A DNA stretch of 64,000 nucleotides. Origin: Amyelois transitella. Its lineage: Eukaryota; Arthropoda; Insecta; Lepidoptera; Pyralidae. This document shows positions 35,122 to 37,912 of this stretch, piece by piece; the stretch's first letter is position 1; every line of letters starts with the position of its first letter. The DNA lies in assembly GCF_032362555.1 (NCBI RefSeq), contig NC_083522.1, positions 6,550,001 through 6,614,000 on the forward strand, written 5' to 3'. Made by a program: the position numbers and the translations under genes. The notes below the pieces were generated by a model. The model saw only the letters and a program-made list of their open reading frames with translations. It was not told the DNA's origin and searched no databases.

Positions 35122-37912
35122 TCAAGGGTAAAGTAGTTTGGGTCCAAATTTGTTGCATCTCTCCACCGCGGCCGCGCCCAGCTTGTGATCGAGGAATGCG
35201 CGCGCGTCGTTCGGCGCGGGCGCTTGGTGGCCAGCGAATTGTATCTGCGAGTATATTAAAATTATTATGAAAAATGATATAGGTTTTGACAACTTGACAA
35301 CTAGTAGGGTATCTGGGTTACACCTAGTTTATTAAGATTATAACGCCAGTGTAATTTTGAAGATTATATAGCCGCCATAGTCGGATTAAAACAATTATCC
35401 AGCTTTTGGCTGTGTTAAAACTACACTTTGTATGCAAAATTTTATGCAGTTTGGTCTAGGGTTTAACTTGGATACACCTTCTTCAACTGATTATATAGTT
35501 TACACAGAGAACATAGGTAAGTACCTATGAAAAATACCTGAGCAAGCGGATGCAAATGTCTTTCAGGAAAGTCTCTTTGATGTGCCAGCACCCAGTCAGC
35601 GGGCCACATTGTCCCGTTTCTAGCGGTGAACGGCAACACTAAGACGTAAACCCTGTTGGCCGCTGAGAAGGCGACGCGGTAATAATGGCCTTTGGTGGCT
35701 CGCTCCCAGACGAAGCCGTCGGCGTCTACTCCGCCGCGTTGGAGCCAGGTTACCCTGGATACGTCGGAAGCGTGGATACCAATTTCGACGTATTCGGCCC
35801 ATGGTAAGATGTCATTGCTGTAAACAATAAAAGAAGTTTTTTTTTCCAACTCTAAGGTATGGTTTTTATAAAATCCATTGCCTTTTTATTTATTATTTAT
35901 AATTTTTTTTAAAATTTATATAATGTGTTATCCCGTATGGGAGAAGACAGAGCCTAAAGTAACGAAAATACTCTAGAGCTATAATGAATAGATCTGATGA
36001 AATTTTAACTGATCGCATAAAAGATGAATTTCAGATTCTTAGTAACACTAAAAAACTACAGCAATGAAGCAAAAGAGCCATAATACAATGCCTTAAGACA
36101 TCGTAAGAAGACCTACCGCATGACGGCGCCCAATAGAGAAGTAGTTTCGAGCCAGCATCGAGCACCAGCTTGTAACAACACGCGCAACACGTGAGCAGCG
36201 ACACGACGCATGTTGCGACGACAACATGGCGGCGTGTTGCGCCCAGAGAGGATGTACGACGGCGTGCCTTGCACTGATGGGTAGCATCTCTGTAATCATA
36301 TCATTTTTTCTTGAAAAACATGCATTAAAAGTAAAAGGAGAACAGGTTACAAAATAATTCTCAAGCATTTGGGGCATGTCAAAATGGTTTATTACCCCCA
36401 CCTATTTCCTTAGGGAATAGGAATGATTTATAATTAGAATTTCATTACATAAATCAATTCCATCATTTAGCCATACAGCTGAATGTAAGACTAGTTAGCT
36501 CTGTCTACCCCATAAGGGTCAAATAGTAAATAAATATGTAAATGAATTAAATGGCAACCATTTGAAATATTTGTTTACCAAAATGATTTTGAACTTAAGG
36601 TGATGTTTAGTTTCTACATGAATTGCAGCTTTTCTCATAAAATAAGTTTCACAAAAGTTTTTTGAACATACCTGTGTCTCTCTCTTACATCCAAACCACT
36701 GGACTCTCCCATCTTCCCTCAACAAAGCTTTCACCCCAAGCTGCTTGTACAACGCCACTCTGTGATCTCTTATTCGTCGCGATACCCTCTGTCGAGCTCC
36801 AGGAGATTTTAACACACTGCGCCCTGTACCCAGCTTTCCATCTAGAATTTGTACCTGATAAAAAAAATATAATAAGTCAGAGAACATATAAATACAATTC
36901 ATGAAACGGATTTGTAATCATGATCTACTTTTTTTATTATATTGTATTTATAATGGCTGTCGGTCTGAATATAAATTAAAAAAGATCTAAGTTGGGTAAT
37001 GAACCTTGTAGGGTTACAGAACACAGGATGCAGTTGCTCTGTGAAATTATCATTTCAGGATCATGGTCACAGGGAGACCTTGGGCTCCTCCCCAGGAAGG
37101 GTACAATATTTAAATATTTTATTACTTGTAACACACATAAATCACACATTATTATAATATTCTGACTTCTTTACCTTAGCATTTTTAACAGAAGTCTGCA
37201 AATACAAAGACTCTGGGAATGGCATTATAAAAGGCTGAGGTAATGTTTGCAACATAGATGTCCTGATCAGCAGAGCATGCTGTCCATGCACAGAATCGCA
37301 GATCTTGCCAGATGCGTCTTTGTTGTACTGTAGAGTCCAATCTACATAATTCCATTTCACTTGCTGACATATCAAATGTGAATTAGCTATTGCAATAGCC
37401 ACAGCATGCGATGACACTGCCGCTGCAGCAGAAGCTGCTTGTTGCAAAACTTTGCGAGAAACCCGAACAGAGTCAGGGACAAACAACACAAACTCTGTTG
37501 ATATATGTGACAAAGGGTTAAGATCTTGTGGTGAAGAATCCAGTTTCAACTCCAAAGACAGAACTTTAACATTTCGAAGTGTCTCGTTGGTCGCAGAAAA
37601 CGGAAAGGGCGGGTAAGGTGTATTTTCACACACAATAAGTACGGGCATATTCGGAAAAGCTGATACGAACGATTGAACGCTGTCAGCGACATCATTCTCG
37701 AAATCTTCAAATTGCCGAAACACTACAGTAACTAACTTAGATAAATGACGAGATGCTCGACCATGTAAAGCATTTGGTGGTAATGTAACAGGCGCGATAG
37801 GATAAAATCTAAACCAAGGGAACAGGTAACTGCAGGCTGAAATTACGACGATTAACACTAAAAATGTATACAACTTGAAAGTAAAACGACCACGACACAA
37901 ACGATAGAACAT
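35122..37912 (-). CDS. FKRP: Fukutin-related protein homologue, catalytic Asp residues missing
   Basis: Golgi type II membrane protein of the LicD/fukutin family; vertebrate FKRP adds ribitol-phosphate to alpha-dystroglycan. Exons: 37912-37175, 36854-36672, 36289-36117, 35817-35538, 35244-35122. All phases agree, giving 498 aa versus 495 in human. The start is ATG 37912; the frame is closed by a stop just upstream. TM segment at residues about 13-33 (YTFLVLIVVISACSYLF). A stem/GT-like half follows (LVTVVFRQFEDFENDV; ISTEFVLFVPD). The zinc finger is complete: WFGCKRETQRC and TPPCC. In the LicD half, human PWDYDVDLG (from memory) corresponds here to PWAEYVEIG, and human HVDLWPF to YVLVLPF, so all four metal-binding Asp are replaced. 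DGFVWERATKG and ARNG are conserved. Possibly a pseudoenzyme. Convergent with DNAI1, divergent from GET3. Confidence 0.92.

What the first reader, a model, noticed from the sequence alone, without database searches (positions are those of the whole stretch)
35122..37912. FKRP homologue that has lost its catalytic metal site but kept its zinc finger
The protein aligns end to end with FKRP (498 aa; WFGC...RC...PPCC zinc finger, DGFVWE, ARNG). At the LicD catalytic motif, where vertebrate FKRP has PWDYDVDLG, the window reads PWAEYVEIG, and where it has HVDLWPF the window reads YVLVLPF. All four metal-binding Asp are therefore replaced, and the Gly-Gly of the preceding GGSLLGA has become TTSLLGA. 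Splicing, frame and fold residues are intact, so this is not simple decay. That points to a conserved pseudoenzyme, or a scaffold or chaperone role in the Golgi, in this lineage.
Basis: partly seen in the sequence, partly recalled or inferred. Interest (0 to 1): 0.8.

Follow-up and report, generated by a model that had tools for sequence, protein, structure and literature searches.

The report
FKRP lacking its catalytic metal site
This animal genome, probably an insect's, carries one intact-looking copy of the muscular-dystrophy gene FKRP whose four known catalytic aspartates have been replaced, so it probably survives as a non-enzyme version of a sugar-phosphate transferase.

Summary
A five-exon minus-strand gene (37912..35122) encodes a 498-aa FKRP, identical to human FKRP at 168 of 444 aligned positions (E 2.2e-87). 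All four Asp needed for human FKRP activity are replaced (D360A, D362Y, D364E, D416L), and the hG[GS] glycines G344/G345 are Thr/Thr. The four zinc Cys, the acceptor-phosphate Arg295 and interface residues Y88 and S221 are kept. The catalytic core (67/153 identical) is better conserved than the stem (78/242). No second FKRP and no alternative exon was found.

New context from the same 327-Mb assembly: PMT-type mannosyltransferases, dystroglycan and a GT8-GT49 LARGE gene are present. Profiles for ISPD (the CDP-ribitol maker), fukutin and RXYLT1 found nothing over cut-off, though for fukutin and RXYLT1 this does not prove absence.

Best reading: a ribitol-phosphate transferase turned pseudoenzyme, kept as a Golgi acceptor-binding or scaffold protein. 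Loss of the metal ligands is shown; inactivity is a strong inference; the scaffold role is inferred. Sharing across relatives and dN/dS could not be tested with one genome.

The parts
37175..37912 (-). FKRP exon 1: ATG, hydrophobic N-terminal segment (aa about 12-34, signal-anchor-like) and most of the FKRP_N stem domain
36672..36854 (-). FKRP exon 2: end of stem, WFGC with first zinc Cys (C302 = human C289)
36117..36289 (-). FKRP exon 3: R308 (= human R295), zinc Cys C309/C329/C330 and TTSLLGA (human GGSLLGA)
35538..35817 (-). FKRP exon 4: PWAEYVEIG (human PWDYDVDLG), DGFVWE, YVLVLPF (human HVDLWPF), ARNG
35122..35244 (-). FKRP exon 5: C-terminus and TGA stop

Best explanation
The gene is the only FKRP found in this genome. 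It encodes a pseudoenzyme: a Golgi type II membrane protein (by homology) that keeps the stem, the zinc-finger loop and most of the nucleotidyltransferase-like domain, but not the residues with which human FKRP holds Mg2+ to move ribitol-phosphate from CDP-ribitol. The loss fits a pathway that has lost its ribitol-phosphate steps (ISPD, fukutin and RXYLT1 not found), while O-mannosylation, dystroglycan, GT49 enzymes and LARGE remain. I think it now works as an oligomeric Golgi acceptor-binding or scaffold protein that helps position O-mannosylated cargo or partner transferases, a non-catalytic job also proposed for vertebrate FKRP. Shown: intact gene model, replaced residues, no second copy found, presence and non-detection of the pathway genes. 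Inferred: inactivity, oligomer retention, scaffold function, age of the change.
For: All four Asp whose Ala mutants were tested in human FKRP are replaced (PMC6965139 sections and passages). Of 13 listed donor-side or donor-closure residues, 11 are changed or missing and 2 (H435, L488) are kept. Acceptor-side R295 and V300 are kept, with T299S and K256R. Interface residues Y88 and S221 are kept. Zinc Cys 4 of 4 are kept; core identity is 67/153 against stem 78/242, which is not the pattern of neutral decay. No second copy. IspD: 0 candidates here, while the same search rings in 13 of 14 control genomes, 12 over cut-off. FKTN_N: no match. RXYLT1_C 15.3 bits, cut-off 27, and RXYLT1_N none. Genes split over several exons do ring in this genome: Glyco_transf_49, DAG1, PMT. 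A non-catalytic Golgi tether model for FKRP is proposed from human patient cells and zebrafish mutants (PMC8134429 passages).
Against: Only one genome was seen, so conservation of the dead site is unproven. D364E and a new E373 leave two carboxylates nearby, so a different metal site is not excluded. Some acceptor or interface residues are also changed (H252G, H412R, L276A). LARGE is present with both DXD motifs, although known LARGE acts downstream of ribitol-phosphate, so a divergent FKTN/RXYLT1 missed by exon-wise profile search is possible. The FKTN_N and RXYLT1_N searches rang in none of the 14 controls, and the tool says this does not show absence. The LicD profile misses even the FKRP exons here, and the short exon 2 of FKRP scores only 17 bits with its own stem profile, so short exons can be missed. 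PMC8478517 calls the cascade well conserved in Insecta (section 12).
Confidence: 0.62

Rival explanations
1. The protein is still an enzyme with altered chemistry: E373 and E376 (and perhaps others) form a new acidic site, and it transfers a different CDP- or nucleotide-linked group.
For: D364E keeps a carboxylate and E373 is new next to it. The catalytic core is better conserved than the stem. POMK is a former 'pseudokinase' shown active (start of abstract in the listing for PMC5142810). Lepidoptera put phosphorylcholine on N-glycans (PMC6994554 passage), so other phosphodiesters occur there.
Against: D362 and D416, which hold or stabilise the site II metal in human FKRP, are Tyr and Leu, and D360 is Ala; the hG[GS] glycines are Thr (PMC6965139).
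Confidence: 0.13
2. Early decay: FKRP became dispensable once the ribitol-phosphate pathway was lost and is drifting toward a pseudogene.
For: ISPD, fukutin and RXYLT1 not found over cut-off; fly CG15651 (FKRP) deletion mutants are homozygous viable (PMC10671637 passage).
Against: 498-codon frame, splice sites, four zinc Cys and most structural motifs are intact, and the catalytic core is the better conserved part, despite at least 10 nucleotide changes at the active site alone (codons, counted by hand).
Confidence: 0.2
3. Assembly or reading error in exons 3-4.
For: None found; no reads were available to check.
Against: At least 10 base substitutions (by hand), frame kept across two exons; assembly of 33 contigs for 327 Mb.
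Confidence: 0.02

Closest known systems
Human FKRP (PDB 6KAJ and others; ribitol-5-phosphate transferase)
   Same: Colinear stem, zinc-finger loop and catalytic domain (query 58-496); four zinc Cys, R295, Y88, S221 kept; E 2.2e-87
   Different: All four essential Asp and both hG[GS] Gly replaced; 11 of 13 listed donor-side residues changed or missing
Drosophila FKRP (CG15651)
   Same: FKRP kept in an insect family (Drosophilidae) in which FKTN, POMK and RXYLT1 are reported to have no orthologue (PMC8478517 section 12; CG15651 named as fukutin-related protein in PMC10671637 passage)
   Different: Drosophila is said to lack LARGE (PMC6971923 passage), which this genome has. The fly active-site residues could not be checked here
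MiD51, a nucleotidyltransferase-fold protein used as a receptor for Drp1
   Same: Nucleotidyltransferase fold used for recruitment (PMC4897736 passages, cover nucleotide binding at the NTase site and Drp1 recruitment; that it is non-enzymatic is recalled)
   Different: Different family, compartment and partner

Membership tests
FKRP orthologue group | FKRP_N stem domain | tested here: met
   Pfam PF22921 262.8 bits, cut-off 27
FKRP orthologue group | C4 zinc-finger loop, absent from fukutin | tested here: met
   C289, C296, C317, C318 all Cys; absence from fukutin per PMC6965139 passage
FKRP orthologue group | Best relative among solved structures is FKRP over nearly the full length | tested here: met
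   E 2.2e-87; the only other sequence at E up to 1 has E 0.53
Active ribitol-phosphate transferase | Asp360, Asp362, Asp364 and Asp416 | tested here: not met
   A, Y, E, L; needed in human FKRP
Active ribitol-phosphate transferase | hG[GS] motif (G344, G345, S346) | tested here: not met
   T, T, S
Active ribitol-phosphate transferase | A source of CDP-ribitol (ISPD) in the genome | tested here: not met
   IspD profile PF01128: 0 candidates in G000; control rings in 13 of 14, 12 over cut-off
Active ribitol-phosphate transferase | Upstream partner fukutin in the genome | tested here: inconclusive
   FKTN_N no match, but it rang in none of the 14 controls; LicD nothing over cut-off, but LicD also misses this FKRP
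Conserved pseudoenzyme | Substitutions shared by relatives under purifying selection | not testable with these tools
   No orthologue could be fetched
Conserved pseudoenzyme | No active paralogue in the genome | tested here: met
LicD family (Pfam PF04991) | Score over curated cut-off | tested here: not met
   12.7 bits against 22.6

The most novel reading that the evidence does not exclude
In this lineage the tandem ribitol-phosphate linker was lost from the dystroglycan glycan while LARGE and dystroglycan were kept. LARGE would then build its polymer on a different, ribitol-free primer, and FKRP would survive as a catalytically dead acceptor-binding subunit of the Golgi machinery.
Probability: 0.28. 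Interest if true: 0.82.

Novelty: new variant of a known kind. Interest (0 to 1): 0.62.

Why it matters
FKRP mutations cause muscular dystrophy through loss of ribitol-phosphate transfer, yet disease severity is reported to follow dystroglycan glycosylation poorly, and a second Golgi role has been proposed (PMC8134429 abstract and passages). An animal that naturally keeps FKRP without its active site would separate the two roles and show what the non-catalytic part does. Keeping LARGE without detectable ISPD, fukutin and RXYLT1 would also question whether a LARGE polymer always needs a ribitol-phosphate primer.

Tried and rejected
Alternative or mutually exclusive exon with an intact DxD: tblastn of the human chain against the whole window (E up to 10) gave only the five exons plus two chance hits (E 2.8 and 4.3), and a motif scan in six frames gave nothing.

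Orthologues elsewhere: viral contigs (1 pattern match, none a relative) and genome contigs (85 pattern matches, none a relative). dN/dS was therefore not attempted.

LARGE absent, as reported for Drosophila: rejected. One Glyco_transf_49 cluster (C20 about 5.828-5.834 Mb) has GT8 pieces upstream that match LARGE1. For the others I scanned one frame each of L011 and L012 and four of L015; only GT49 was found. L011 and L012 match LARGE1 weakly (58 and 23 bits), so I call them B4GAT1-like; that label is mine. L017, fetched upstream of L012, was not scanned.

LicD genome search: one 15.7-bit hit below cut-off. LicD also fails on the FKRP here, so it says little about fukutin.

Literature. 'FKRP pseudoenzyme' gave 0 papers and 'fukutin Lepidoptera' 0. 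The listings (18 of 19 papers listed; 6; 3; 5) showed nothing on a catalytically dead FKRP. Searches (12 of 19,010 listed; 8 of 32 listed) were too broad to tell. The library holds only open-licence papers. Term look-ups that led nowhere: PMC4924997, PMC11419382, PMC6307911, PMC11854990, PMC4873967. PMC7971549 only names CG15651 among fly flight-performance genes (33).

Taxon check: a search for (TTAGG)6 did not complete twice. The window's GET3 exon matched PDB GET3/ASNA1 chains, which did not settle the order.

Full report
Gene model. The minus strand at 37912..35122 carries five exons with GT-AG introns of 293-382 bp that join to a 498-codon frame plus TGA. Exon GC is 0.41-0.59 against 0.28-0.32 in the introns, and the N-terminus has one hydrophobic stretch, mean Kyte-Doolittle about 2.1 over residues 14-32, as expected for a type II Golgi protein.

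Identity. The closest solved structure is human FKRP, E 2.2e-87, residues 58-496 aligned to chain residues 6-449; the only other sequence at E up to 1 is unrelated at 0.53. 168 of 444 human positions on the alignment are identical. Pfam finds the FKRP stem domain at 262.8 bits and LicD only at 12.7 bits, under its cut-off of 22.6.

Active site. Kuwabara et al. 2020 (PMC6965139; I saw the abstract, section 5 part 2, section 8 and passages) describe Mg2+ near Asp360/362/364 (site I) and at Asp362 with Asp364 and Asp416 (site II). They call the three site-II Asp critical to activity and Asp360 indispensable, from Ala mutants. [quoted passage not shown] their supplementary figure was not seen. In the window protein these positions read A372, Y374, E376, L424 and T356, T357. 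One change, D364E, is conservative. The codons require at least 10 base changes by my count.

What is kept. All four zinc Cys are kept, as are R295 (its Ala mutant is inactive; it contacts the acceptor phosphate) and V300; T299S and K256R are mild. Y88 and S221, at or near the dimer interface, are kept. Changed on the acceptor or oligomer side: H252G, H412R, L276A. On the donor side (loop 433-437, Q482, C-terminal patch 483/484/488, zinc-loop patch 303/308/309/313) H435 and L488 are kept and the other 11 of 13 are changed or missing. Near gaps the pairing is uncertain. By region, identities are 78/242 stem, 17/31 zinc loop and 67/153 catalytic core. A catalytic core that is better conserved than the stem, yet has lost every metal Asp, is what a pseudoenzyme looks like and not what simple decay looks like.

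Copy number. In G000 (327,366,114 bases, 33 contigs; the window is C18:6550001-6614000) the protein query gives five matches at E up to 0.001, all of them the exons of this gene. The FKRP_N profile gives exon 1 (232.6 bits), exon 2 (17 bits) and one 16.4-bit hit elsewhere under the cut-off of 27. No alternative exon in the window carries an intact motif.

Pathway, present. PMT matches at two places, C1 and C17, best 98.7 bits (POMT1/POMT2 is my label). DAG1 on C18, best 58.9 bits. Glyco_transf_49 in 16 matches on C3, C5 and C20, four clusters if the C5 matches 16-18 kb apart are one gene. One C20 cluster has Glyco_transf_8 pieces upstream (33.1 and 22.3 bits, cut-off 24.3) whose best solved relative is LARGE1 (E 3.9e-27 and 8.8e-22). 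It has DSD and DAD where human LARGE1 has DTD and DID; that these are the catalytic DXD motifs is recalled. I take it as a LARGE gene.

Pathway, not found over cut-off. IspD: 0 candidates, while 13 of 14 controls ring, 12 over cut-off. FKTN_N: none. RXYLT1_C: one 15.3-bit match, cut-off 27. RXYLT1_N: none. LicD: one 15.7-bit match, cut-off 22.6. For FKTN_N and RXYLT1_N nothing rang in the 14 controls either, and the tool says this does not show absence. Other split genes do ring, but LicD misses the FKRP exons and FKRP's own exon 2 scores only 17 bits, so short or diverged exons can be missed. POMK, POMGNT1, POMGNT2 and B3GALNT2 were not searched.

In print. Bigotti and Brancaccio 2021 (PMC8478517; sections 11, 12 and passages) report the cascade well conserved in Insecta, but POMK, FKTN and RXYLT1 without orthologues in Drosophilidae. 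CG15651 is described as coding for a fukutin-related protein, and its deletion mutant is homozygous viable (PMC10671637 passages). Drosophila is said to lack LARGE (PMC6971923 passage). Wood et al. 2021 (PMC8134429 abstract and passages) report that FKRP pulls down non-muscle myosin-10, and propose that it localises fibronectin in the Golgi for sialylation, a job they do not ascribe to FKRP catalysis. Searches for FKRP as a pseudoenzyme or for fukutin in Lepidoptera returned no papers.

Reading. The simplest account: a lineage that stopped making CDP-ribitol lost the need for FKRP catalysis, and FKRP was kept for a job that needs its fold, its zinc loop and perhaps its acceptor-phosphate contact. 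Known: sequence, no second copy found, metal ligands replaced. Strong inference: no ribitol-phosphate transfer. Weaker inference: scaffold role and co-loss with ISPD, fukutin and RXYLT1. Against a tidy story: LARGE with both motifs remains, so either another primer is used or a divergent enzyme was missed.

Limits. One genome, no orthologues, no expression data, no structure model. The taxon was not tested; about 327 Mb in 33 contigs fits Lepidoptera but does not prove it.

Noticed in passing
G000:C20:5824500-5834400 (L016): A LARGE-type gene (GT8 then GT49, both DXD motifs kept) in a genome where ISPD, fukutin and RXYLT1 profiles find nothing over cut-off: what primes LARGE here is open.
   Followed up: partly
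G000:C18:6243586-6245816 (L018-L020): Dystroglycan (DAG1) lies on the same contig as FKRP, about 340 kb away.
   Followed up: no
window 23561-25486 (+): 641-aa open frame with a reverse transcriptase domain (RVT_1 142.7 bits), a retroelement copy with an unbroken frame; described only.
   Followed up: no
window 40633-41157 (+): Exon of a GET3/ASNA1-type ATPase: ArsA_ATPase 155.9 bits, best solved relative GET3 at E 1.4e-63.
   Followed up: partly
window 49729-50310 and 45443-46555 (-): Two open frames that read like pieces of a PIG-O type GPI ethanolamine-phosphate transferase (label recalled from reading the translation; Pfam gave no match at E up to 0.01).
   Followed up: no
window 31892-32226: Tandem array of a 114-bp unit, 2.9 copies, 97% matches.
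   Followed up: no
window 33035-33107 (+) and 14166-14237 (-): tRNA matches of 72.1 and 35 bits; the weaker one may be a tRNA-derived repeat.
   Followed up: no
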